Source: Candidatus Zixiibacteriota bacterium
GTDB lineage: Bacteria > Zixibacteria > MSB-5A5 > JAABVY01
Assembly (NCBI GenBank): GCA_011056555.1
Contig: DSEQ01000035.1
Coordinates: forward strand, 62,001-126,000
Length of the DNA: 64,000 nucleotides
Direction: 5' to 3'
The notes below the pieces were generated by a model. The model searched no databases. It was not told the origin of the DNA and saw only the letters and a program-made list of their open reading frames with translations. Within the stretch, counting starts at the first letter, position 1. Every line of letters begins with the position of its first letter. Positions 40,138 through 57,830 of the stretch are shown piece by piece. Both the position numbers and the translations under genes were made by a program.

Positions 40138-42495
40138 TCAGCAATCAGGGACACCATCGCTATTGGTATCGCAGGGATTGTTGCCGCCGATGAATACATA
40201 ATTTATGATCCAGACCGCATCGCTGACATTCACGGACGAATCGCAATTTGCGTCCCCTGTCCACATTGGATCGGGTGCATCGCCGTCGACAAAGACATAG
40301 TTAATTATAAATACCGCATCGGAAACATTGCACTGTTGATCCCCGTTGGAATCACCGCACATTCTCTCGCAGGCATCCCCCACACCGTCTTCATCGCTGT
40401 CAACCTGATCGGGATTATAGGTATCGGGACAATTATCATCGCTCTCACAGACGCCATCCTGGTCGGCGTCATTTTCTTCATCTAAAGGACAGGGATCGCA
40501 GATATCACCCATGCCGTCAGAATCCGTGTCAAGCTGCTCCGGATTAAATGCGGTCGGGCAGTTGTCCGGCGGGCAGTCGTTGTCGCTGTGACCTTCATCC
40601 CCGTAGCCGTCCCCATCCTGATCAAAGCAGACCGAATCGGGGGAATGTATTGTGATTACAAATATGCCCGTATCAGCCAGGGGCGGATCACCGGAGTCGA
40701 GCATTCGCACTTTGAACACGAAGGTCGAAGCATAATTCGGCGTGCCGGTAATTGTACCGACTTTGTCTCCATTGAATATACAGCCGTATGGTATCTGAGC
40801 GCCGGCGACAAGACTCCAATAGTATGGAGGTATTCCGCCCACGCCCTCGAGTTGATAAAAATACTCATAGCTGTAATAGCCGTCCGGAGGCTCATCTCCG
40901 GTTATATGCACCTCGCCGTCGCAGGCGTCACCGATTCCATCACCATTGACATCCCCCTGGTCCGGATTGGGAGTGTCGGGGCAATTATCGCAGGCATTGC
41001 CGAAACCGTCGGAATCGTTGTCATCCTGGCCTACATTACCCACCAGCCAGCAATTATCGTCTTCGTTGAGGATACCATCACCATCGGCATCAGGATCACA
41101 TACATCACCCATGCCGTCTAAATCCACATCGCTCTGATCTGGATTGTATGTGTCAATACAGTTATCGCAGACATCCCCTACGCCGTCACTGTCCATATCT
41201 TCCTGTCCAGGGTTATAGTCGACCGGGCAGTTGTCCTCGTCGTTCAGGTAACCATCATCATCCGCATCCTGCACCGGCATAACATTGATGAACATCCACT
41301 CCGAACCGGGCCCTCCGGGATAATAAAGATTGTCGACCGTGTACCAGGCATTATTCCATCCTCCCCAGCCGTAATTCATATGGATCTGGTTATAGGCGCC
41401 GGAGATTCTCCAGCCGTCGCAGACAATCGCATGCGTGGGAATAGTATAGGGCATTGGACGGCCCGCGTCTATTTCAGAGGCGATCAGATCGAACCAGCCC
41501 TGGGCAGTATAGCTGCCCCGATAGGCAGTCTGAATTGACTGGTCATAACGGAAATAATTGGTCCAGACATTTTCGTTGGGCCAGGTTCCTGAACCATCCA
41601 CGCCATAGTCCATTTCATGTGCCACGCCCACTTCATAAGCAATCTCCGAGAGAGCCTCAACCTGAGCGCTGGTACATCCGCCGCTGCAATCAGGAGGCAT
41701 ATTGGCCCAATCATATTCATCTGAGAAGTCAGCGGACAAATATTGAGCATTTATACCGCCATCTCCGTTCCACCAGTATGTCTTGGTGCCGGTCCCGGCC
41801 GGGGGCCATTGCCAGTACCACATTATCTGGCTGGCCGCGGTGGCCACACAACCGACCACACAACGTCCGCCGTCACCTAAGGGGCAGAGCGCATTATAGG
41901 GATAGCCCTGGTGCCATTCATTGGGAAAGAGAAGTATTTCGCCTTCGGTCAGGGCGCCTTTGCCCTCCATCGCTATGCTGTTCATAAAATCTTCTGAAGG
42001 CACGGCATAAATATCCCAGGCCCCGCGATGCTCGTTAATCTGATCCGTCTGAACCGCATCGATACTGCCGTATTCTTCTATGAAACCGTTAATCTTGTGA
42101 CTCAGGACATCGCGAAACATCTGCATGAATCCGCCCTCCTGAGTGATCGAGATATCAGAGGTCTCGGAATAAGCTTTAATCGGTGGAAGTTCCTTGAGCG
42201 CCGGCACGACTATAAAACCGGACGGCTCGACCGAGTACAGACGTCCCACCAGCCGGCCTTCAACAGTTATATCATCGCGCTGGATAATCTGCGGGCTTAT
42301 ATCCTCCGCCCAGGCTCCACGATGATAGACCATGTAACTGAGCCAGTTTTCAGCGGCCAGATCCATCTCGGATTTGGAGGCTGTCTCGGCTGAGAGACTG
42401 GAAGTTAAAAAAGTGATAATCAAGAATGAGATGGTAAGTATCGTCAGGATACCAAAATATGAATTTTTTCTGCTGGGGCACGGCATATTTGACAA
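40138..42495 (-). CDS. Secreted C10 family (streptopain-type) cysteine protease with TSP3 repeats and dockerin-like tail
   Basis: A 785-residue secreted protein. Signal peptide about 10-38; a Spi-like propeptide to about 175; C10 protease domain about 185-405 with catalytic Cys216 in RCVVGCVATAASQIM, His355 in PTHAIVCDGW and the MNYGWGGW segment, all matching SpeB. Acidic calcium-binding thrombospondin type 3 repeats occupy 411-528 and 626-712, around an Ig-like domain (531-617). The last 73 residues are a two-copy dockerin-like module. TTG start at 42495 after GGAGGTGC. The promoter at 42555-42582 is a perfect consensus. It is probably an extracellular protease or autoprocessing factor. Confidence 0.9.
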   Translation of the reverse strand: MSNMPCPSRKNSYFGILTILTISFLIITFLTSSLSAETASKSEMDLAAENWLSYMVYHRGAWAEDISPQIIQRDDITVEGRLVGRLYSVEPSGFIVVPALKELPPIKAYSETSDISITQEGGFMQMFRDVLSHKINGFIEEYGSIDAVQTDQINEHRGAWDIYAVPSEDFMNSIAMEGKGALTEGEILLFPNEWHQGYPYNALCPLGDGGRCVVGCVATAASQIMWYWQWPPAGTGTKTYWWNGDGGINAQYLSADFSDEYDWANMPPDCSGGCTSAQVEALSEIAYEVGVAHEMDYGVDGSGTWPNENVWTNYFRYDQSIQTAYRGSYTAQGWFDLIASEIDAGRPMPYTIPTHAIVCDGWRISGAYNQIHMNYGWGGWNNAWYTVDNLYYPGGPGSEWMFINVMPVQDADDDGYLNDEDNCPVDYNPGQEDMDSDGVGDVCDNCIDTYNPDQSDVDLDGMGDVCDPDADGDGILNEDDNCWLVGNVGQDDNDSDGFGNACDNCPDTPNPDQGDVNGDGIGDACDGEVHITGDEPPDGYYSYEYFYQLEGVGGIPPYYWSLVAGAQIPYGCIFNGDKVGTITGTPNYASTFVFKVRMLDSGDPPLADTGIFVITIHSPDSVCFDQDGDGYGDEGHSDNDCPPDNCPTAFNPEQLDTDSDGMGDICDPCPLDEENDADQDGVCESDDNCPDTYNPDQVDSDEDGVGDACERMCGDSNGDQQCNVSDAVFIINYVFVDGDAPDPMWTGDANCDSSVNVSDAVWIINYVFIGGNNPCDTNSDGVPDC
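40912..41265 (-). repeat. Thrombospondin type 3 repeat block
   Basis: Codes for residues 411-528 of the C10 protease: repeated DxDxDG and DNCP elements of about 12-15 residues, a calcium-binding spacer. A second shorter block lies at about 40360-40620. Confidence 0.85.
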
Positions 42496-42951: not shown

Positions 42952-43836
42952 CTACTCCAGAAACAACTTATATATCAATAACTTCGTGCTGACCTCTTTT
43001 ACGCTGTCATCCTCAGCCGGAGAATCATAATAGATATACTCGATACGACCCTGAATCAGCTGCTTCGGAACAATTTCGGTACAGGCGGCATCCGCCCAGC
43101 CATAAGAATTGTCCCCTATAATAAGGTAACTGTCCTCCGGAATCGTAACTGTATGTACTTCTTCCCTTTCAACGATATCTGTCTGATCCAGCCGCATCTC
43201 CGGCACCTCCACCGGCTCGATCCCCTCGGTCAGAATCTGGTAACCATCCAGGAAAATAGCATTATTCCTGATCTCGATCTCCTTCTCCCCGGCCCATACA
43301 CGACCGATCGAAAGACGGCCATCAAAGCGCGCGTTGCGATACAGCACTATCTCATCAGGCTTTGGCTCCTCGAGCCAGTAATGTACACGGCTGACATAGA
43401 GCACATCGTTACGATCATAAGTCCCCTGCATACAGTCAACATCGACCTGATAAAATTTATACATAAGCTGCCCCGGAAGGCTGGTCAGTATCAGACCGAC
43501 CATCAAAACTACCATATAGAAAATCCAGTTGTTGGTGACTCTAGCCTGATATTGCTCTTTCTGGCGATGGGCGATTACAATGGCTTGCACAATCGCCAGG
43601 ATATAAACGGCATACCTGAAGATCACCAGCTTCTCGGGAAGATCGGGGGAGACCACAGACATAAGTACATGCGACAGCACTACAAGCATTATTATCAACA
43701 GGGCCAGGATTGTCTGCCCGGTGTAAAGCTGTCCCATGCCCGGAAAAACGATCCCCATCACCCCGGCCAGCCAGACCTTGCGCGGGCCGGTATCGATCAG
43801 ACGGTTAGCGGAGATATTGTCGCTTTTTTCTACCAA
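42952..43836 (-). CDS. Signal peptidase I-like membrane protein with replaced catalytic residues
   Basis: A 294-residue protein. The first 125 residues contain four membrane helices (22-42, 43-60, 70-90, 104-120) with GIVFPGMGQLYTGQ, a TM2/DUF5683-like hairpin. Residues 125-280 follow the signal peptidase I boxes: VDCMQGTYDRNDVLYVSR (box B), a stretch in place of the KRVIGLPGD lysine box (LSIGRVWAGEKE), GDNSYGWADA (box E) and the family beta end. The catalytic Ser is Cys135 and the general-base Lys is Gly178. It therefore looks inactive as a standard peptidase, or uses another mechanism. It starts 7 bp inside the end of the PBP1A gene. Confidence 0.75.
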   Translation of the reverse strand: MVEKSDNISANRLIDTGPRKVWLAGVMGIVFPGMGQLYTGQTILALLIIMLVVLSHVLMSVVSPDLPEKLVIFRYAVYILAIVQAIVIAHRQKEQYQARVTNNWIFYMVVLMVGLILTSLPGQLMYKFYQVDVDCMQGTYDRNDVLYVSRVHYWLEEPKPDEIVLYRNARFDGRLSIGRVWAGEKEIEIRNNAIFLDGYQILTEGIEPVEVPEMRLDQTDIVEREEVHTVTIPEDSYLIIGDNSYGWADAACTEIVPKQLIQGRIEYIYYDSPAEDDSVKEVSTKLLIYKLFLE

Positions 43837-46034
43837 TTTTGAATGCCGTCATCGGTTGTATCGGGCGTACTGATATTGAAATCCTTCTTATTCTGATCCG
43901 TGAAGACCCCTGATGAGGGATGTATGTGGCAATATGTTTTTGGCAATGTCTTCCTGGTGAATATCTCGCGCCCGACATCCACACATTTATCTGTAGCCAG
44001 CTCTCCGGAATCATAGCAGACATGTGCGTATCTGATACCATCCGGTGCCTGGAAATGCGCCTCGGGTGTATCTCCGGGAATATTTTCGTGGGCCGCAATC
44101 ATGATTTTGGTCCAGACCGGCAAAGCGTTCTTTGCGCCGGTCTGGTTTATTCCGATAGAGAGTTTAACATCGAAGCCCACCCAGACCGTTGATGTTATCT
44201 GCGGAGTATAACCCGAGAACCAGTTATCGGCGAAATTATCGCTGGTTCCAGTCTTGCCCCCGGCCTCCCGATGGAATCCGCGCCAGCGTGCCCCATGTCC
44301 TGTTCCCTGAGGTTCATCCATCACCGACTTCATCATATCGACCATGATATATGCGGTCTCCGGGCTGAGCACTTCTTCTTTTTCAGGGACCGGATTCTCC
44401 TCAAGTATATTGCCGTAGCGGTCGACCACCTTGTAAATAAATCTCGGCCTGACCTTTACACCACCGTTCGGGAAGACCGAATAGGCCTGCGCCAGGTCGA
44501 TCAAACGCACCTCGCTGGTCCCGATCGCCAGGGACAGGTCGGGCGAGAGATGGGAGGTGATACCCATCTTCCGGGCATAGAATATGGCCTGCTGGGGCTG
44601 AATCATATTCAGGAGCTTAATTGCGATCAGGTTGCGGGAACGATAGAAACCCTCCCGCAGACTCATCTTGCCGTCGAATTTGCTGTCGAAATTATGAGGG
44701 CGCCATTCCTTGGCTCCCGGTATGGTATAGACCACCGGTGTGTCCCACATCTGCATACAGGGGGAATAGCCATTGTCGATTGCGGCGGTATATACAAAGG
44801 GCTTGAACGCTGACCCCGGCTGCAGCAATGACTGCACCGCACGGTTGAATTTGGTATCGCCGAAGTCCTTTCCGCCCACCATGGCCAGGATGTCGCCGGT
44901 TGCATTCTCGAGCACGATACTGGCGGCCTGAATCTGCCGGTGCCTGTATGCGGTTGAATCCCCTTCCTCATCATAATATTTAACAGAGTATTCCGCAAAA
45001 TCCGGATGGTCCGGAGTATAGGTGGAGTCGATTCGGTTCTGTATCAGGTCGGTCTGCTCCTTGATCGCATCCTCCGCAACCTTCTGGATATATGGGTTCA
45101 GCGTGGTATAGACAGAAAGCCCACCGGAATATACTGTCGAATCTCCGTAAGTGTCCACCAGGTACTGGCGCACGTACTCTGAAAAATACTGGCCGTAGGT
45201 CTCCGGCCTGTTGGAGAGATCCAGCTCTATCGGAATCTGCTTCAGGCTGTCGGCCTCCTCAGCCGTGAGCTTCTTATTTTCGGCCATTAATTCCAGAATC
45301 GCATTGCGCCGTTTTAGAGCTTTTTCAGGGTAACGGATGGGCGAATAGCCATACGGCGCCTGGATCAAACCGGCCAGAAGCGCCGATTCCTCTATCGTTA
45401 ATTCCTCGACATCCTTGTTGAAATAATTCTTGGCCGCCTCGAATATACCGAAAGAACGATTGCCGAAATCGTACTGATTGAGATACATTTCCAGAATCTC
45501 GTTCTTGGAGTACAGCCGTTCGATCTTAATAGCGGTCAGGGCTTCCTTGATTTTCCTCCCCAGGCTGACGTCCCGGTTTAAGAAAAGCATGCGTGACAGT
45601 TGCTGCGTGATTGTGGAGGCGCCCTGAGAACCGAAGCCGTGCAGAATATTCTTCAGGACCGCACGAAAAACGTCCCGCGACGATATGCCCCAGTGATTGT
45701 AAAAATTCTTATCCTCAGCGGAAAGAAGCGCATCAACCATATGCTGCGGAATGCGGTCATAACCTACCAGGTTGCGTTGTTCCGCAAAATACTTCTGGAT
45801 GACCGATCCGTCACGCGCATAAATCCTGGTAACCAGCGATGGCTCAATGTTGTAGAGCCTGTCTATTGCCGGCAGTTCATGGTTATAAACATGGATTACA
45901 TAGGCAGAAAGAATTCCGCTTGTGACCAGAAATATGCCTAACACGCCGATAAGAATATACTTGCGCGACAGGAATTTTCTGCCGTTTTTTGCGTTCGGCT
46001 CAGTCCGGCCATTTTTCATTCTTCGTCTTTGCAT
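43830..46034 (-). CDS. Class A penicillin-binding protein 1A
   Basis: A 734-residue bifunctional peptidoglycan synthase. One N-terminal membrane helix (25-50); GT51 glycosyltransferase domain with Glu107 in SAEDKNFYNHWG and the GASTITQQLSRML motif at 138-151; transpeptidase domain with Ser408 and Lys411 in SAFKPFVY, the SxN box in YRSRNLIAIK and KTGTS further on. The enzyme polymerises and crosslinks murein at the outer face of the inner membrane. ATG at 46034. It is coupled to the next gene, the signal peptidase-like protein (overlap 43830-43836), an association worth noting. Confidence 0.95.
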   Translation of the reverse strand: MQRRRMKNGRTEPNAKNGRKFLSRKYILIGVLGIFLVTSGILSAYVIHVYNHELPAIDRLYNIEPSLVTRIYARDGSVIQKYFAEQRNLVGYDRIPQHMVDALLSAEDKNFYNHWGISSRDVFRAVLKNILHGFGSQGASTITQQLSRMLFLNRDVSLGRKIKEALTAIKIERLYSKNEILEMYLNQYDFGNRSFGIFEAAKNYFNKDVEELTIEESALLAGLIQAPYGYSPIRYPEKALKRRNAILELMAENKKLTAEEADSLKQIPIELDLSNRPETYGQYFSEYVRQYLVDTYGDSTVYSGGLSVYTTLNPYIQKVAEDAIKEQTDLIQNRIDSTYTPDHPDFAEYSVKYYDEEGDSTAYRHRQIQAASIVLENATGDILAMVGGKDFGDTKFNRAVQSLLQPGSAFKPFVYTAAIDNGYSPCMQMWDTPVVYTIPGAKEWRPHNFDSKFDGKMSLREGFYRSRNLIAIKLLNMIQPQQAIFYARKMGITSHLSPDLSLAIGTSEVRLIDLAQAYSVFPNGGVKVRPRFIYKVVDRYGNILEENPVPEKEEVLSPETAYIMVDMMKSVMDEPQGTGHGARWRGFHREAGGKTGTSDNFADNWFSGYTPQITSTVWVGFDVKLSIGINQTGAKNALPVWTKIMIAAHENIPGDTPEAHFQAPDGIRYAHVCYDSGELATDKCVDVGREIFTRKTLPKTYCHIHPSSGVFTDQNKKDFNISTPDTTDDGIQNW

Positions 46035-46131: not shown

Positions 46132-47817
46132 TTATTTTGCTTCCAGCCGGATGTTTTCAGTCTCGAAGCGCGCCCGTACGGAGACAGTGTCGTCAAAAAA
46201 GAAGTACGGCTCAGAATACTGCAGCCCCTGCAAATCTCCTGAAAAGTGAACCCCGTTGCTGTCAAGATCGTCAAAACCATAGAAAAAGTAATTTCCCGCC
46301 GGCACCTCCACCGCAAAGCGCATAGAATCATCCAGCGCAAAAGCGACTCTTGACTTGCGATCGGTGCTGGCAATATAGAGTAGAGGATTTACCATATTTC
46401 CGATGCCCGTTACAGTACCCGATATTGAGCCGTAATCCTCGATGTCTTTTGTCCTGAATGCATAAGTCATAATGGTATCTCCGGCGCTGTTCTTCCCGGA
46501 CCGGTCTTTAATAGAGCGCAGATTCAGAAATAATGAATACTCCGCCCCCGTACCCAGAGTATCGTCAGATTGAGCACGAAATACAGTACCTTCGGCCTGA
46601 ACCCAGAAGTTTCTTAAATAACTGGAGTCGCCTGTAAGCAGATATATAAGCGAGGTATCGGCACCCTCTATTATTATCGGTTCTGAAAACAGGAATTCAA
46701 AATCGGAATCATGCGGGAAATCAGTCTGCCCCTCGCTCGGTCTCGATCTCACCAGCCTGGGCGGCTGCTCATCTTCGAATACATCCACCTCAAAAGAGGC
46801 GGTATCCAATTCCTGGGATAAAGGCTTGCCCTTTACGGACTTTATATCGGTCGCTTCCAGCCTGTAAATGCCCCCGGCCAGGGTGAATTCGGGCACCAGC
46901 ATTATTAGATCGGATGAATCCTGCAAGGCAAAGGTGTACGCCAATTCAATCAGGGAATCATTCTCCGGCCCTCTAACCTTAAATTTCTCGGCAGAGAGGC
47001 TGGAGGCCAAAACAAGATCCGATACTTCAACTGCAATAAGCAAATCCGTTGTATAATCGGCAGATACGACCCTCAAACCGGCCGTGTCCTGGCTGGAAAG
47101 CACGAAATTCAGGCCCCGCACCTCCGGATGAGCCGAATCGATTACAGCGGGCATTATGGGAATTCCTATCTGGTCAGCCTGTGGATCGAAAGTTCGATCC
47201 GAGGCGACATCCCTGACTGCGAAACAAAGATATTTTCCATCTGCAAGATATTCGAATTTATAGTAGCCGGAGTCATCGGACTGCGTGACATACAGCGGCT
47301 GACGGTCGAATATGCTGAAGCCGCTGTCATATGGAAACGCCCACAGGTCGGCACTTTTAAAAGGCCTGTGATCCTGTACGGTATATCCCCGGATACTGCC
47401 CGTATCCAGAACTTCGCCGGTGGAGAAAGCCAGCCTGTATGGCTGTTCCAGCTTGTTGTTGCGGAGGTCGGAAAGCTGTGTCTTCAGGGTAATCAGGTAG
47501 GTCCTGTCTTCCATTAGTTTCTCTTCGAATTTTATTTTCAGGGTGCTGCCGTCCCAGTCCAGATCGGGAAATTTTTCCGGCTCGGGCACTATCAGCAGTG
47601 ATCTGGCGGCGTCCTCTTTTTTTATTTTCTCCGAGAACTCGATTCGTATTTCAGTGTCGGTGGCTACTCCTAGGGCACGCTGTTCGGGGGATGTGGAAAC
47701 TACTTCCGGCGGAGTCTCGTCGGGCGGCCCGCCAGGCGGAAATTCAATTTTTGCACATGAAAGCAAGATCAGCGATGAAAATAGATAAACAAGAAAAAGG
47801 CTGGCCAGTCTGTTCAC
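46132..47817 (-). CDS. Ig-like domain lipoprotein
   Basis: A 561-residue protein with a lipoprotein signal (lipobox LLSC, Cys21). After CAKIEFPPGGPPDETPPEVVS comes a SbsA-type Ig-like (Big_5) domain (about 35-135, with STSPEQRALGVATDTEIRIEFSE). A second such block appears near 340-450 (RLVRSRPSEGQTDFPHDSDFE). Proteins of this make-up are common in the Bacteroidota-Zixibacteria range with no firm function; adhesion or envelope structure is possible. It overlaps the TPR lipoprotein stop by 4 bp, so the two are coupled. Confidence 0.75.
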   Translation of the reverse strand: MNRLASLFLVYLFSSLILLSCAKIEFPPGGPPDETPPEVVSTSPEQRALGVATDTEIRIEFSEKIKKEDAARSLLIVPEPEKFPDLDWDGSTLKIKFEEKLMEDRTYLITLKTQLSDLRNNKLEQPYRLAFSTGEVLDTGSIRGYTVQDHRPFKSADLWAFPYDSGFSIFDRQPLYVTQSDDSGYYKFEYLADGKYLCFAVRDVASDRTFDPQADQIGIPIMPAVIDSAHPEVRGLNFVLSSQDTAGLRVVSADYTTDLLIAVEVSDLVLASSLSAEKFKVRGPENDSLIELAYTFALQDSSDLIMLVPEFTLAGGIYRLEATDIKSVKGKPLSQELDTASFEVDVFEDEQPPRLVRSRPSEGQTDFPHDSDFEFLFSEPIIIEGADTSLIYLLTGDSSYLRNFWVQAEGTVFRAQSDDTLGTGAEYSLFLNLRSIKDRSGKNSAGDTIMTYAFRTKDIEDYGSISGTVTGIGNMVNPLLYIASTDRKSRVAFALDDSMRFAVEVPAGNYFFYGFDDLDSNGVHFSGDLQGLQYSEPYFFFDDTVSVRARFETENIRLEAK

Positions 47818-49508
47818 CGGTCCAATTTCTCCCTTATTGCAACATTGTCCGGATCAACCCCCAGCGCCTTCTGCCAGGTCCTGCGGGCCTCCTCTTCCCT
47901 GCCCTGGGCCTGATATATTTCCGCCAGGTGGTCGTACAATTCGACGTCAGGATTGTCCATAAGTTCAATTGCTTGCTGAATATAACTTTCCGCCTTTTCC
48001 AGCTTGCCCAGCTTGAACATCACCCACCCATAGCTGTCCAGGTAGGCGGGATTCAATGAATCTTTCTCCAGGGCGCGTTCGATCATATCCTCTGCCCGCG
48101 CCAGATTGATCCCGCTGTCGGCATACATGTAGCCCAGATAATTCAGGGCGGGATGGAAATCCTGATCTAATTCGAGTATCTGCTCGAAGTGGGCCACCGA
48201 TTTATCAAACTCTCCGATCCGCTCGTAGGCGGAAGCTAAGGTGAAGAGAGCGCCGATGTCGGTCGTGCTTGTATCAACCACACCCTCCAGAATGTTGACC
48301 ACGCTCTGGTACTGCTCCAGTTGAGCATAATAACGGGAAAGGTATATCTGCAGCTCTGTACGCCCGCTGGACACTCGTTCCATGCCCTCGCGCATTATAT
48401 CGACTGACATCTGCAGCGAATCCTGGGCACGGTATATTTCTGCCAGGTTGATCCAGCCATCCGGTATGGAATCCACCAGATCGACTACTTTCCAGAAATT
48501 CGATTTGGCATCCTCAAGCCTGTTCTCAAAAACAGCGATTCTTCCCAGGTAATAATATGGGAAGAAATTTGTCGGGTCCAGTTCGGCCTGCATATTAAAC
48601 ATGCGCCGGGCCAGCTCGGCCTCATTAAGGTCGATGGCCATGGTGCCCAGTTGTCCCAGAAGTCTGGAGCGGTTGGGATACTCCTCGGCGATTTTCTCAA
48701 TCTCCGCCACGGCCGCCTCTTTCTCTTCGTTCTGAATATAGGTTTCGATCAGCTCCAGGCGAGCATCCAGACTTCCGGCCGCCACCTTAATATAATCCTG
48801 CAGTACGGCCTGCGCGGAATCACTCTTGCCGGCGGCGTTAAGCACCCTGGAAAGCAGCATATAAGCATCCTTATTCTCAGCGCTGGGATCGGCGCGCAGC
48901 GATCTTTGGAAGGTCTCGATCGCTTTGGACGTGTCGTTATTCTGTATGTGCAGTTCGCCCAGTTCATTTATAATCTGAGTGCTGCCGTTCAAGCGCACCA
49001 TGCGCTCATAATTCTTTATGGCCTTGTCGATCTCTCCCACCTGACGATAGTAATTGCCCAGATACCAGTAAGGATTGATATTGGTCGGGTCCAGCCTTGC
49101 GCCCAGTTCATAATACTTGAGGGCCAGTTCCCAGTTGCCGAGGGAACGCTGAACATCCGCCTTCATCAAAACCGACTCGGAATAAATGTCCTCGATCGGC
49201 TCCAGGAGTTTCCAGGCCACTTCATACTCGCGCATGCCCATCCTGATATTGGCCAGCGCCACCCGGATTTCATAGTTATCAGGATCATACCTGAGCGCAT
49301 TTTTGTAGTAATTTATGGCCAGCTCATAATTCTCTTCCAGCTCGGCTACGACACCGGATATATAATGATAAAAGGCCGCCTGGGACATCGGCTCTTCTTT
49401 CAATTCCTGCTTGCTGAGATTCTCTGAAACAACCTTCGGCTTGGGTCCGCATGCTCCCGCTGCAAGAAGTATGAAAATTGCAACCAGTATGTAGCTTAGT
49501 TTTCTCAT
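47814..49508 (-). CDS. TPR-rich lipoprotein
   Basis: A 564-residue protein with lipobox AGAC (Cys20) and then about 12 tetratricopeptide repeats over residues 45-560 (for example ELAINYYKNALRYDPDNYEIR and NPYWYLGNYYRQVGEIDKA). Such lipoproteins, like PilF/PilW or NlpI, act as scaffolds at the outer membrane. The gene is 35 bp after tyrS and overlaps the Ig-like gene. No pilus gene is adjacent here, so a pilus role is not implied. Confidence 0.82.
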   Translation of the reverse strand: MRKLSYILVAIFILLAAGACGPKPKVVSENLSKQELKEEPMSQAAFYHYISGVVAELEENYELAINYYKNALRYDPDNYEIRVALANIRMGMREYEVAWKLLEPIEDIYSESVLMKADVQRSLGNWELALKYYELGARLDPTNINPYWYLGNYYRQVGEIDKAIKNYERMVRLNGSTQIINELGELHIQNNDTSKAIETFQRSLRADPSAENKDAYMLLSRVLNAAGKSDSAQAVLQDYIKVAAGSLDARLELIETYIQNEEKEAAVAEIEKIAEEYPNRSRLLGQLGTMAIDLNEAELARRMFNMQAELDPTNFFPYYYLGRIAVFENRLEDAKSNFWKVVDLVDSIPDGWINLAEIYRAQDSLQMSVDIMREGMERVSSGRTELQIYLSRYYAQLEQYQSVVNILEGVVDTSTTDIGALFTLASAYERIGEFDKSVAHFEQILELDQDFHPALNYLGYMYADSGINLARAEDMIERALEKDSLNPAYLDSYGWVMFKLGKLEKAESYIQQAIELMDNPDVELYDHLAEIYQAQGREEEARRTWQKALGVDPDNVAIREKLDR

Positions 49509-52646: not shown

Positions 52647-55600
52647 ATGCGCACGAAACTGCTATTGGCTGCTATCGTGGTTTTTCTGTCCGTAAGCATG
52701 CTCGCGGCAGAGACCATCGATCTGGGGGCAGCTGATAAACAGCTCAATGTTGAGGTGCTGGAATCCAACGATCAAAGGACCGTGGTCAAATTCGATATCG
52801 GCTCCTTTGAGCAGGAAACAGTTAATATCAACGGAGAGTCCTATTATCAGTTGAGACTCGGAGACGAGTCGTTTCTATTGAATGCCGCGGAACCGGAACT
52901 CCCGCGAGTCTGCCGCAGCATTATTATTCCCGATGATGCAAAGATGCGGGTCAGCATCCTTGCCTCGGAATATACCGATTTCGAGAATTACCCGGTGGTT
53001 CCATCCAAGGGTAATCTCCTCAGAAATGTTAATCCGGATGATGTTCCCTATACCTTCGGCGAAGTTTATTCGACCGACGCATTCTATCCGGGAGAACTCG
53101 CAAATATCCGCGATCCCTATATCATCAGGGACTTCCGCGGGACAACAATTGATCTCAACGCTTTCCAGTACAACCCGGTCACACAGAGACTGCGTGTGTA
53201 CACCTCGGTCACAGTGGAGATTGCCAATGTCGGCCCGGGAGTCATCAATGTTCTGCAGAACGCTGACCGCACAAAAATTGTCGAGGACTTCAAGCAGATT
53301 TACTCCCGCCGCTTTATCAACTACGATTTCCAGACCGACAAGTACACCATGCTGACTGAATCCGGCGACATGCTGATCATCTGCTATGACGCCTTTATGG
53401 CCGATATGCAGCCCTTTGTGGACTGGAAGATGCAGAAGGGTATCAAAACCACTATGGTCGGTACCTCCACTGCCGGTACAACAAGCTCGGCGATCAAAAG
53501 CTATATTCAAAGTTTCTTCGATGCCGACAGCACAAATCTGGCCTTCGTTCTGCTTGTCGGTGATGCCGCCCAGATACCCAGCCCGTATGCTTCCGGCGGC
53601 TCATCCGACCCCAGCTACGGTAAGGTCGTTGGCACTGACGTTAACCCCGATATCCTGATAGGAAGATTCTCGGCCGAGACCGTGGCACATGTCCAGACCC
53701 AGGTTACCAAGTCCGTGGAATACGAGCAGAATCCATACGGAGCAGACTGGTTCCACAAGGGAACGGGCATTGCCTCCGATGACGGCGCAGGTATCGGTCA
53801 CAACGGCGAAGCCGACAATGTCCACATGGGCTATATTCGTGATGATATGCTGGCACATACATATACATTGGTGGATGAAATTTATGAACCCACCGGCACC
53901 GATGTTATGGTGACTAATGCTCTCAATAATGGTCGTTCATATGTAAATTATTGCGGACACGGGAGTACGACCTCCTGGAGCACAACCGGCTTCAACAACA
54001 CCGACGTGAACAATCTGACCAACGACAACATGCTGCCGTTTATCATAAGCGTAGCCTGCGTCAATGGTGATTTTGACGGTTACACCTGCTTTGCCGAGGC
54101 CTGGGCCAGGGCAACTAACGGTTCCGAGCCCACCGGCGCTGTGGCAAGCTTCATGGCTTCTATTAACCAGTCCTGGGCTCCGCCAATGTGGGGACAGGAT
54201 GAGGTCTGTGACCTCCTGATGGCTGAGACACGTACAACCTTTGGTTCGCTCTGCTTTAACGGCTCTGCCTACGTGATCGAGCAGTCCGGTGCAGTCGATA
54301 TCTCGGATACATGGCTTGTCTTCGGCGATCCATCACTGCAGTGCAGAACCGATAATCCGGTAGCGATGACCGTCAACTACAATCCCGCCTGCTTCTTCAA
54401 CGTTCCCACTTACGACGTTGAAGTTGTAGGCGTTGAAGGCGCCCTCTGCGCTCTTTATGCCGATGGCGTGCTCTACGGCTCAGCCTACACAGGCGCTGAC
54501 GGTATGGCCACCATCAACCTGAACCAGTTCCTGCCGATCGGCAGCGATGTTACTTTAACCGTTACAGCTTACAATAAATCGACCTTTACCGCCTCGATCA
54601 CTCCGGCCTCTGATCTGGCCATTGTGCACACTCCCTTGCAGGATACCAAGGATACCCTGAACGATTATCAGGTCAACTGCACAATCTACTCCAGCGACAC
54701 CATCACCCAAAACGATGTCATCCTGCATTACGACGTTGGCGCAGGTTATGTCGATGAGGTTATGTCGCAGGTCAAGATCATCACCGAAGATTATCAGGCC
54801 TACATACCGGTTCAGGCTGCCGGAACTTCAATAAGTTACTTCATCACAGCCAGCAACCAGGGCGGGTTCTATGATACCACGGATGTCTTCACATTCGAGG
54901 TTATCGATTACCAGATGATCCTGGAGCCGGATGAAGCGGGAGTGACCGCTCCCGTTGACGATACGGCCTGGTATGATATGCGGGTCACCAATGATGGTGT
55001 TCTGGCCGATGATTATACCCTGGCGGTCACAGGAGACGAGTGGCCCACGGAAATCCGCGATGCAACCGGTACAACGGTCATATCATCATCCGGGACTCTC
55101 CTGGGTGATGAGTATCTCGATTTCAAGGTCATGGTGGTTGTCCCTGCCACGCTGGAGGGAGAATTTGATGAAATCCAACTTACTGCGACCTCAACCGGCG
55201 AACCGACACTGTTTGAGACCACGACTATAACCACGACATCAGCCGGAATGCCCTGGCCGATACCATTTAGCGATAATTTTGTAACGACCACATTTGACAT
55301 GACCAAATGGGAATCGGTGGCCGAGGCCGAAATCAACTCACTCGGTATCGACGAGCCCAGCGCGCCGTATAGCGTCAACTTGAACGGCCAGTCTATCGGC
55401 GGCGATGCGATCGAGACCGAGAAGATCAATCTTAAAGACGAATCCAATGTTATTGTCAAATACTATTACCAGCAGACCGGCGGCGGCGAGTCGCCTGATG
55501 CAGGTGATGATTTAATTATCGAATATCTCGACGGTACCGATACATGGGTAGAGATCAACCGCCATCTTGGCGCCGATCCCGATATGACTGAATTCGAGGA

Positions 55601-57830
55601 AGTCGAACTTGGTCTTCCCGCCGGCGCCATGCATGCCGAGTTCCGCCTGAAAATCAGATGTACCGCTACCTCCGGCAATTACGATGACTGGTTCGTGGAT
55701 GATATCTATGTCGGTCATCCTTCAGATTATGATGTCCGCATAATTCCTTCCATGCAGAGCCAGTATGGTCCCGCCGGAGACAGCGCCGCTTATACGCTTA
55801 CAATTATCAATAAGGGCTTCCTGGACGACAACTTCGATCTTACCTTCGACGGTGACTGGAACGTGGCCTTCTTCGATGAGGCATTAAGCGGTGAAATTAA
55901 CGCCACCGGCGTCGTTGCGGGCGGCGATTCTATCAATGTCATCGTGAAAGTGGAAGTTCCCGCAGGTACACCGCTGCATACTGTAAACAGCACGACTATC
56001 TGGGCTACCTCGCAGGGTGATGCCAATATGCAGGCGTTTGCCCTGGTAGAGACCATCTCGGCCGGATTCCCGGCGGCGATACCATGGTACGAGACCTTCC
56101 CGGATGATACCCTGTATACTCAGCACTGGTTTACTTTTGAGGGCGCGGAGGTAACCTCCGAGGCCCCGGGTACTCCCTCGCAGCCTTACAGTTTCAATCT
56201 TGACGGCGGTGTTGATACAGTGGAAACCCAGCTGATCGACCTTTCCGGCCAGTCCGGAGTGCTGCTCTCATATTACTATGAGATGGGCGGCATGCAGGAT
56301 CCGCCGGAATATGGCGATAACCTGTGGATCGAATATCTTAATAATGCGGGCACCTGGATGGCCCTGCACTCACACGAGGGCGGCGGAGAGGCCATGCAAG
56401 AATTCGAATATGTCAGCCTCGAGCTTCCTGTGGATGCACATCACTCCGGCCTGCAGATCAGAATGCGAACCTTCGGATCAAACGCCGGCGAGGATAACTG
56501 GTATGTCGACAATATCCGGGTCGATTACCCACCCTCAATGTCTGTCTCCGGAGAGTCCATGACCGAGACCCTGCTTCAGGGTGATTCGGCCATGCACGAA
56601 ATGGTGATAGAGAACACCGGCCAGGGCGGCCTGATATACCAGATTGATCTGGTACCGCATCTGCGTGATAATTTTGTCTTCGCCAAGCCGGCCGAAGGCC
56701 AGGCAGAACCGGCCAGCCACGATTACCCTGAGGTCGTCTATGAAGATGTGGCCAAGGGTGAAGATATCAACTTCACAGGCTATCCGGTGACACGCGGTAT
56801 GGGCGGACCGGATAACTTCGGTTACTACTGGGTCGATTCCGATGATCCCAATGGGCCTGCTTTTGAGTGGGTCGACATCTCATCGACCGGGACAGATTAT
56901 GCCGGTGACCTGGCGGATGACAATTATATCGGACCCATCTCAATCGGCTTTGACTTCGTCTATTATGGCACGACCTATAACGAGGTTTACATCGGGTCCA
57001 ACGGCATTGTCGGTTTCACGGCAACTTCAATGGAAGCCCGCACGCCGCGTCCGATACCCACTGCCACAGTGCCGAATGCGATCCTGGCATTGCTCTGGGA
57101 TGATTTGAATCCAACCGATGCTGACAATCCGGGAGTACATCTCTACGTCGGACAGACCGGCGACATGTTTGTGATCCAGTTCGTGGATTATCCCGAATAT
57201 CGCGCTGATCCCGGGGATGTCTTCACGGGCGAAGTCATTCTCTATAATGATGGACGGATCCGGTACCAGTACCAGTCGATTGCGTCCGGTTTCGATGTGC
57301 TCGGATGCGCGGTCGGAATAGAGAATCATTATGGCGATGACGGTCTCGAGGTGGCTTATCTCACCAGCTACCTGAAGGACGGTCTGGCGATCGAATTCTT
57401 CAAACCTTATGACTGGATGGTGCTGGACAAGCTGGAAGGCGAGGTTGCCCCGGGAGCATCCGACACGATCGAATGTCTCTTCAGAACTACAATGGATCTC
57501 GAACCCGGCACATATACCGCCGATATGATCATAAACAACAACGATCCGGTCAACGACCCCACGACAATTCCCATGGAACTGATTGTGCTTGAAAATATAC
57601 CCTATATCTGCGGTGACGCCGATGGAAGTGAAACCGTTAATGTTAGCGACGCCGTCACGGTTATCAATTACGTATTCGTGTCCGGCACCGCCCCCGACCC
57701 GATGGAGGCTGCGGACACCAATTGTGATGGGGCTGTAAATGTCTCAGATGCCGTCAATATCATTAACTACGTCTTCGTCGGTGGAAATGCGCCCTGCGAC
57801 ACCAATGGCGACGGAGAACCCGATTGTTAA
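52647..57830 (+). CDS. Gingipain-type (C25) secreted cysteine protease with dockerin-like tail
   Basis: A 1727-residue secreted protease. Signal peptide 1-20; propeptide to about 230; C25 catalytic domain about 240-590 with His438 in NYCGHGSTTSW and Cys471 in ISVACVNGDF, exactly 33 residues apart as in gingipain R. Ig-like stretches follow, then two MAM- or jelly-roll-like blocks (about 885-1030 and 1150-1295) each ending in DDWFVDD or DNWYVDN, and a later beta-rich region. The last 73 residues (1655-1727) are a two-copy dockerin-like module, gaplessly alignable with that of the C10 protease. No Por C-terminal sorting domain is visible. Strong terminator follows. Confidence 0.9.
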   Translation: MRTKLLLAAIVVFLSVSMLAAETIDLGAADKQLNVEVLESNDQRTVVKFDIGSFEQETVNINGESYYQLRLGDESFLLNAAEPELPRVCRSIIIPDDAKMRVSILASEYTDFENYPVVPSKGNLLRNVNPDDVPYTFGEVYSTDAFYPGELANIRDPYIIRDFRGTTIDLNAFQYNPVTQRLRVYTSVTVEIANVGPGVINVLQNADRTKIVEDFKQIYSRRFINYDFQTDKYTMLTESGDMLIICYDAFMADMQPFVDWKMQKGIKTTMVGTSTAGTTSSAIKSYIQSFFDADSTNLAFVLLVGDAAQIPSPYASGGSSDPSYGKVVGTDVNPDILIGRFSAETVAHVQTQVTKSVEYEQNPYGADWFHKGTGIASDDGAGIGHNGEADNVHMGYIRDDMLAHTYTLVDEIYEPTGTDVMVTNALNNGRSYVNYCGHGSTTSWSTTGFNNTDVNNLTNDNMLPFIISVACVNGDFDGYTCFAEAWARATNGSEPTGAVASFMASINQSWAPPMWGQDEVCDLLMAETRTTFGSLCFNGSAYVIEQSGAVDISDTWLVFGDPSLQCRTDNPVAMTVNYNPACFFNVPTYDVEVVGVEGALCALYADGVLYGSAYTGADGMATINLNQFLPIGSDVTLTVTAYNKSTFTASITPASDLAIVHTPLQDTKDTLNDYQVNCTIYSSDTITQNDVILHYDVGAGYVDEVMSQVKIITEDYQAYIPVQAAGTSISYFITASNQGGFYDTTDVFTFEVIDYQMILEPDEAGVTAPVDDTAWYDMRVTNDGVLADDYTLAVTGDEWPTEIRDATGTTVISSSGTLLGDEYLDFKVMVVVPATLEGEFDEIQLTATSTGEPTLFETTTITTTSAGMPWPIPFSDNFVTTTFDMTKWESVAEAEINSLGIDEPSAPYSVNLNGQSIGGDAIETEKINLKDESNVIVKYYYQQTGGGESPDAGDDLIIEYLDGTDTWVEINRHLGADPDMTEFEEVELGLPAGAMHAEFRLKIRCTATSGNYDDWFVDDIYVGHPSDYDVRIIPSMQSQYGPAGDSAAYTLTIINKGFLDDNFDLTFDGDWNVAFFDEALSGEINATGVVAGGDSINVIVKVEVPAGTPLHTVNSTTIWATSQGDANMQAFALVETISAGFPAAIPWYETFPDDTLYTQHWFTFEGAEVTSEAPGTPSQPYSFNLDGGVDTVETQLIDLSGQSGVLLSYYYEMGGMQDPPEYGDNLWIEYLNNAGTWMALHSHEGGGEAMQEFEYVSLELPVDAHHSGLQIRMRTFGSNAGEDNWYVDNIRVDYPPSMSVSGESMTETLLQGDSAMHEMVIENTGQGGLIYQIDLVPHLRDNFVFAKPAEGQAEPASHDYPEVVYEDVAKGEDINFTGYPVTRGMGGPDNFGYYWVDSDDPNGPAFEWVDISSTGTDYAGDLADDNYIGPISIGFDFVYYGTTYNEVYIGSNGIVGFTATSMEARTPRPIPTATVPNAILALLWDDLNPTDADNPGVHLYVGQTGDMFVIQFVDYPEYRADPGDVFTGEVILYNDGRIRYQYQSIASGFDVLGCAVGIENHYGDDGLEVAYLTSYLKDGLAIEFFKPYDWMVLDKLEGEVAPGASDTIECLFRTTMDLEPGTYTADMIINNNDPVNDPTTIPMELIVLENIPYICGDADGSETVNVSDAVTVINYVFVSGTAPDPMEAADTNCDGAVNVSDAVNIINYVFVGGNAPCDTNGDGEPDC

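What the first reader, a model, noticed from the sequence alone, without database searches (positions are those of the whole stretch)
42952..43836. Signal peptidase I-like protein with Ser to Cys and Lys to Gly changes, coupled to PBP1A
The boxes of signal peptidase I are recognisable, but the catalytic Ser aligns with Cys135 and the lysine base with Gly178. Four added membrane helices precede it. Its start overlaps the end of the PBP1A gene. It could be a non-proteolytic scaffold for the synthase, or a cysteine enzyme.
Basis: partly seen in the sequence, partly recalled or inferred. Interest (0 to 1): 0.65.

Follow-up and report, generated by a model that had tools for sequence, protein, structure and literature searches.

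The report
Dead signal peptidase partnered with PBP1A
This bacterium (candidate phylum Zixibacteria) makes a membrane protein shaped like a signal peptidase but with its cutting machinery replaced, and its gene overlaps that of a cell-wall-building enzyme, which suggests that an old protease fold now serves as a non-cutting partner of the wall synthase.

Summary
Window 43836..42952 (-) encodes a 294-residue S26 (signal peptidase I) homologue. Cys135 and Gly178 sit at the positions of catalytic Ser90 and Lys145 of E. coli LepB. No displaced Ser-Lys pair was found, and the active-site loop is also rewritten (Ser278 to Trp, Arg282 to Ala). Orthologues at 84% and 47% identity keep the Cys, have Gly or Ala for Lys, and share the rewritten loop; each overlaps the PBP1A stop by 7 nt with the same TTG start. 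A more distant, contig-truncated copy in another family also sits on the PBP1A stop; it has Ser with Gly for Lys. dN/dS is 0.076. Some 39 other zixibacterial PBP1A loci and about 250 genomes outside the phylum lack it. The genomes keep 2-3 other S26 genes. The best-covered fold match is SipA of S. pyogenes, a dead signal peptidase (Asp/Gly) needed for sortase pilus assembly. Best reading: a non-proteolytic membrane partner of PBP1A. A cysteine protease is unlikely: no general base, and the Cys is not universal in the clade. The PBP1A partnership is inferred from synteny and overlap, not shown. The extra helices belong to a wider zixibacterial fusion family in which the dyad was lost repeatedly.

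The parts
42952..43836 (-). Pseudo-signal-peptidase gene (294 aa, TTG start): TM2/DUF5683-like membrane module plus inactive S26 domain
   Evidence: ORF; PF10502 and TIGR02227 above cut-off; orthologues at 84% and 47% identity; dN/dS 0.076
43830..46034 (-). PBP1A gene (734 aa), transglycosylase plus transpeptidase; SxxK, SxN and KTG motifs readable in the translation (LLQPGSAFKPF, SRN, KTGTSD)
   Evidence: TIGR02074 593 bits, PF00912 and PF00905; motifs read directly from the translation
43830..43836 (-). 7-nt overlap TTGGTAG: the TTG start of the pseudo-peptidase lies inside the end of PBP1A; same junction in G001 and G003, and a TTG overlapping the TGA stop in G039
43564..43776 (-). Residues 21-91: added membrane module (helices 21-30, 34-38, 42-61, 67-91)
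   Evidence: AlphaFold2 secondary structure, hydropathy, weak PF18935 similarity below its cut-off
43462..43527 (-). Residues 104-125: transmembrane helix in the place of the signal-peptidase membrane anchor
43024..43461 (-). Residues 126-271: extracytoplasmic S26 beta domain
   Evidence: residue blocks 131-200 at mean pLDDT 78-93; low-confidence loop 203-223; Foldseek to signal peptidases and SipA
43432..43434 (-). [quoted passage not shown]
43303..43305 (-). Gly178 codon (GGT) at the position of the general base Lys145 (box D); the following Arg is kept
43066..43116 (-). Box E, residues 241-257, GDNSYGWADAACTEIVP in place of GDNRDxSxDSRxWGxVP: Ser278 to Trp247, Arg282 to Ala251, Tyr283 to Cys252; GDN and Asp280 kept

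Best explanation
The protein is a catalytically dead type I signal peptidase homologue. It is made by translational coupling with PBP1A and works as a non-proteolytic membrane partner of that class A penicillin-binding protein. Proposed mechanism: ribosomes finishing PBP1A re-initiate at the overlapping TTG, so the two proteins are made together and at a linked ratio. The membrane module holds the S26 domain against the outer face of the membrane beside the transglycosylase domain. The former peptide cleft, or the surface around it, binds a segment of PBP1A or of another wall-assembly protein without cutting it, and so stabilises, positions or gates the synthase. Shown here: loss of the dyad and of supporting residues, conservation under purifying selection, conserved overlap with PBP1A in two families, S26 fold by prediction, other S26 genes in the same genomes including canonical Ser-Lys copies in the host. 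Inferred: co-translation, physical contact with PBP1A, peptide binding, effect on synthesis.
For: Dyad absent in all members seen: Cys/Gly, Cys/Gly, Cys/Ala and Ser/Gly. Box E, which in active enzymes helps hold the base and binds the substrate (PMC4049620, PMC12984324), is rewritten identically in three orthologues as GDNSYGWAD. dN/dS 0.076 for membrane and outer parts alike. PBP1A is the upstream neighbour with start and stop overlapping in G000, G001, G003 and G039. The S26 tree joins the four at 99/91, while the PBP1A tree puts G039 with its own family f6 at 97/97, so a recent transfer of the whole cassette or a stray contig is not supported. PBP1A adjacency is specific: 39 other zixibacterial PBP1A downstream regions, a few cut short by contig ends, show no S26 gene. 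Each of the four genomes has two or three other S26 genes, of which canonical Ser-Lys copies are seen in the host (L001, L002). Precedent: SipA (Asp/Gly) has no detectable peptidase activity, keeps its peptide cleft, and is essential for pilus assembly by a sortase, another envelope transpeptidase (PMC4049620). SipA chain 4n31_A is the best-covered fold match (TM-score by target 0.72).
Against: No interaction data. Overlap also serves efficient expression of unrelated genes. Only four genomes carry it, and most Zixibacteria do without it, so PBP1A does not need it in general. The G039 copy is cut by the contig end before box E, keeps Ser, and joins the clade on a long branch. The other fused S26 proteins, several also without the dyad, are not near PBP1A, so inactivity alone does not point to PBP1A.
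Confidence: 0.55

Rival explanations
1. Dead signal-peptidase homologue whose job is unrelated to PBP1A, for example binding signal peptides or membrane-protein ends as a secretion chaperone or decoy; the PBP1A overlap is only a convenient expression arrangement.
For: The same membrane-module plus S26 architecture, several with lost dyads (Gly/Met, Val/Gln, Phe/Met, Gly/Lys, Ser/Asp, Ser/Glu), occurs in at least ten zixibacterial loci away from PBP1A. The peptide-binding cleft is the retained feature in SipA (PMC4049620).
Against: The pairing and stop-start overlap persist between families f1 and f6 while PBP1A has diverged to 57% identity. The PBP1A-linked copies form their own clade.
Confidence: 0.27
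2. Cysteine-dependent peptidase or acyl-transfer enzyme: Cys135 is the nucleophile and something other than Lys activates it.
For: Cys is conserved in the three f1 orthologues at exactly the nucleophile position. From memory, LepB with Ser90 changed to Cys keeps some activity, so the fold can carry a thiol nucleophile. GDN, which positions the nucleophile (PMC12984324), is kept.
Against: The base is Gly or Ala, Ser278 is Trp, and no His or Lys takes their place in the boxes. The G039 relative has Ser with Gly instead. In SipA, mutating the residue at the nucleophile position had no effect (PMC4049620).
Confidence: 0.08
3. Cys135 and Cys252, the only two cysteines and both in or next to the old active site, form a disulfide or bind a metal, stapling the pseudo-active site as a structural or redox-switch element. 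This is a sub-mechanism compatible with the best explanation rather than a separate function.
For: Exactly two cysteines in G000 and G001, and both positions kept in G003, which has a third next to the second. Position 252 corresponds to LepB Tyr283, in box E. No other S26 protein of the phylum in the motif table has Cys at either position.
Against: Neither DsbB nor VKOR was detected in the four genomes, so a standard disulfide-making route was not found. The tool gave no coordinates, so the distance between the sulfurs was not measured.
Confidence: 0.3
4. Sequencing or assembly error, or a decaying pseudogene.
For: The genomes are fragmented assemblies; the closest named record is a metagenome assembly.
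Against: Same residues in independent genomes, intact frame, dN/dS 0.076.
Confidence: 0.01

Closest known systems
SipA of Streptococcus pyogenes (PDB 4n31, 4k8w; PMC4049620)
   Same: S26 fold; nucleophile replaced and Lys replaced by Gly; Ser278 equivalent replaced; encoded with an envelope transpeptidase (a sortase) and functions without detectable proteolysis
   Different: Asp instead of Cys at the nucleophile; LepB Gly272 is Asn in SipA but Gly here; no extra membrane module; partner is a sortase and pilins, not a PBP. Related by fold, not shown to be its orthologue.
SpsA of Staphylococcus aureus (PMC12445088)
   Same: Signal peptidase I homologue lacking two catalytic residues beside an active paralogue in the same genome
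   Different: Dispensable; no PBP link or extra helices reported in the text read
Type I signal peptidase LepB/SpsB (Peptidase_S26, TIGR02227)
   Same: Boxes B, D and E recognisable, membrane anchor and beta domain; profile scores above curated cut-offs
   Different: Catalytic Ser and Lys, Ser278 and Arg282 absent; not an active signal peptidase by sequence
Zixibacterial TM2-module/S26 fusion proteins
   Same: Same architecture; several also lack the dyad
   Different: Not next to PBP1A; keep canonical box E (Asp-Ser-Arg); 17-24% identity
Known class A PBP partners (LpoA, LpoB, LpoP; from memory)
   Same: Gene or protein partner that modulates a bifunctional PBP
   Different: Those are outer-membrane lipoproteins with other folds; none known to me has a signal-peptidase fold

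Membership tests
Type I signal peptidase (S26A, active) | S26 beta fold with membrane anchor | tested here: met
   PF10502 and TIGR02227 above cut-off; Foldseek to SpsB, LepB, SipA
Type I signal peptidase (S26A, active) | Catalytic Ser in box B | tested here: not met
   Cys135
Type I signal peptidase (S26A, active) | General-base Lys in box D | tested here: not met
   Gly178; Gly/Ala in orthologues
Type I signal peptidase (S26A, active) | Box E Ser278/Asp280/Arg282 | tested here: not met
   Trp247/Asp249/Ala251; only Asp kept
Type I signal peptidase (S26A, active) | Cleaves signal peptides | not testable with these tools
   Needs biochemistry
SipA-like dead signal peptidase | S26 fold without Ser-Lys dyad | tested here: met
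SipA-like dead signal peptidase | Gene next to a sortase and pilins | tested here: not met
   Neighbours are PBP1A, a tRNA-Leu gene and a C10 peptidase; so analogy, not membership
SipA-like dead signal peptidase | Conserved peptide-binding cleft | tested here: inconclusive
   GDN kept, but Ser88, Tyr143 and Ser278 equivalents changed; no coordinates to compare clefts
Cysteine peptidase | Nucleophilic Cys with a general base in place | tested here: inconclusive
   Cys present in three orthologues, Ser in G039; no conserved His or Lys at the base position
Class A PBP activator | Binds and changes activity of the PBP | not testable with these tools
   Only conserved gene overlap shown

The most novel reading that the evidence does not exclude
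A signal-peptidase fold, stripped of catalysis, has become a dedicated, translationally coupled membrane regulator of a class A PBP in Zixibacteria: a new kind of PBP partner, and a second pairing, parallel to SipA with its sortase, of a dead signal peptidase with an envelope transpeptidase.
Probability: 0.45. Interest if true: 0.65.

Novelty: new variant of a known kind. Interest (0 to 1): 0.48.

Why it matters
Dead signal peptidases are known mainly from SipA and SpsA, and how SipA helps a sortase is unsolved in the work read here. A separate lineage in Zixibacteria, tied by an overlapping gene to a bifunctional wall synthase, would suggest that the fold is reused as a non-cutting holder of membrane-near protein segments during wall or surface assembly. 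It would also give PBP1A a new class of partner. The repeated loss of the dyad in the wider zixibacterial fusion family offers a natural series for asking which parts of the fold matter once cutting is gone.

Tried and rejected
Displaced Ser-Lys pair elsewhere in the protein: rejected by consistent alignment of boxes B, D and E. Lipobox reading of Cys135: the preceding DVD does not fit. Recent transfer of the cassette or a misbinned contig as the source of the G039 copy: its PBP1A groups with its own family f6, so not supported. Wider spread: the genome-contig scan returned only the G001 contig, and 387 genomes, about 250 of them outside the phylum, gave no further hit of comparable strength. 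The same-genus genome G002 lacks both this gene and PBP1A, which looks like incompleteness (83% complete). Oxidative folding route for the two Cys: no VKOR or DsbB found. The viral fold library gave only ordinary S26 and LexA-like hits. Literature searches for an inactive signal peptidase linked to a PBP found none in the open-access library.

Full report
What is there. The minus strand of the window carries, in order, a TPR lipoprotein (49508-47814), a Big_5 (Ig-like) lipoprotein (47817-46132), PBP1A (46034-43830), and the finding itself (43836-42952), followed by tRNA-Leu(CAA) (42809-42722) and a secreted C10 peptidase with thrombospondin-3 repeats and a dockerin domain. The nearest public record is a contig of Candidatus Zixiibacteriota bacterium Bin_249, so the window comes from a zixibacterial genome.

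Alignment. The 294-residue product scores above the curated cut-offs of PF10502 and of the signal-peptidase equivalog TIGR02227, so automatic annotation would call it signal peptidase I. Residue-level alignments agree with one another: box B reads VDVDCM for IPSGSM, box D reads SIGRVWA for YIKRAVG, and box E reads GDNSYGWADAACTEIVP for GDNRDNSADSRYWGFVP. Thus Ser90 is Cys, Lys145 is Gly, Ser278 is Trp, Arg282 is Ala and Tyr283 is Cys. GDN and Asp280 remain. No alternative Ser-Lys pair was found.

Orthologues. G001 (same genus, 84%) and G003 (same family, 47%) have Cys at the nucleophile, Gly and Ala at the base, and the same GDNSYGWAD loop with the second Cys. Between G000 and G001 dN/dS is 0.076, equal in the membrane and outer parts, against 0.047 for PBP1A. 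This is a maintained protein, not a relic. A fourth relative in G039 (another family, contig-truncated after box D) has Ser with Gly, so within the clade the Lys is lost in every member and Cys is not universal. That argues against a Cys-based enzyme. If the tree is right, it suggests that the base was lost first, but this order is inferred from four sequences.

PBP1A link. In G000, G001 and G003 the junction reads AATTGGTAG: the TTG start lies within the last codons of PBP1A. In G039 a TTG overlaps the TGA stop. The G003 gene is at a contig end that carries the PBP1A tail, read from the junction DNA; the main PBP1A hit lies at the end of another contig. Forty PBP1A downstream regions from across the phylum were fetched. 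Apart from G039, none shows an S26 gene after PBP1A, although a few were cut short by contig ends. The S26 tree unites the four PBP1A-linked copies (99/91, with a long-branch warning). The PBP1A tree, from C-terminal parts, puts G039 with its own family (97/97), so the pairing either dates to a common ancestor of families f1 and f6 and was lost elsewhere, or the S26 gene moved alone to the same spot. Either way the position beside PBP1A is selected or very old.

Wider family. At least ten other zixibacterial proteins share the TM2/DUF5683-like module ahead of the S26 domain. At least four have intact dyads; others have Gly/Met, Val/Gln, Phe/Met, Gly/Lys, Ser/Asp or Ser/Glu. All those with a complete box E keep its Asp-Ser-Arg. 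None of those examined adjoins PBP1A. So the extra helices are not an adaptation to PBP1A, and loss of catalysis has happened more than once in this architecture.

Structure. AlphaFold2 on a 50-row alignment gave mean pLDDT 79 and pTM 0.67, with a poor loop at 203-223. Foldseek found signal peptidases (SpsB, LepB) and SipA. Whole-length TM-scores are low, probably because the membrane module is not in the targets and the domain placement is loose, but SipA 4n31_A is covered at TM-score 0.72 by target length. The fold assignment is secure; side-chain geometry was not available.

How it likely works. The host has two canonical Ser-Lys signal peptidase genes elsewhere (L001, L002), so this gene is unlikely to be needed for ordinary signal-peptide removal. 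The SipA work provides the closest precedent: Asp and Gly at the dyad, no detectable peptidase activity, mutation of the nucleophile-position residue without effect, a conserved peptide cleft, and an essential role beside a sortase by an unsolved mechanism (PMC4049620). The most economical reading is that the zixibacterial protein likewise binds without cutting, and that its client is PBP1A or something PBP1A acts with. Dead enzyme: shown by sequence to the extent sequence can. Coupled expression: strongly suggested. Contact with PBP1A and its effect: inferred.

The two cysteines. They are the only ones in the host protein, both in or beside the former active site, and both retained in the three orthologues. 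A disulfide or a shared metal is possible, but neither DsbB nor VKOR was detected in the genomes and distances could not be measured. It is left open.

Verdict. Observation confirmed, with the helix count corrected. The non-proteolytic interpretation is favoured, the cysteine-enzyme interpretation disfavoured, and the PBP1A scaffold role plausible but unproven. New variant of a known kind (dead signal peptidases), with a new partner.

Noticed in passing
G000 contig C11, L003:1399-2061: A second unusual S26 protein in the same genome: Ser replaced by Ala (KITTPAM), Lys and box E kept, with what reads like a lipobox (INISC) near its N-terminus, so perhaps a lipoprotein-anchored inactive signal peptidase.
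   Followed up: partly
L038, L008, L014, L045, L041, L072 (other zixibacterial families): TM2-module/S26 fusion proteins in which the Ser-Lys dyad was lost in different ways while box E Asp-Ser-Arg stayed intact; a recurrent trend toward dead signal peptidases in this phylum.
   Followed up: partly
L041:1480-2586 (G112): Fusion protein in which the TM2-like membrane module is duplicated in tandem ahead of the S26 domain.
   Followed up: no
L071:3727-6041 and L073:3966-6292: Two intact-dyad fusion S26 genes lie just downstream of genes that look like PilX-type pilin proteins, suggesting dedicated processing or assembly of pilins.
   Followed up: no
G000, G001, G003, G039: No DsbB or VKOR family match, although PBP1A tails across the phylum carry conserved Cys residues (in the host followed by CHIH), which may bind metal.
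   Followed up: partly
window 40138-42495: Secreted C10 (streptopain-type) peptidase with thrombospondin-3 repeats and a dockerin C-terminus; a second large secreted protein at 52647-57830 ends in a similar dockerin-like repeat.
   Followed up: partly
window 46132-49508: A TPR lipoprotein and a Big_5 lipoprotein overlap each other by 4 nt just upstream of PBP1A on the same strand; the TPR protein could be an LpoA/LpoP-like PBP regulator.
   Followed up: no
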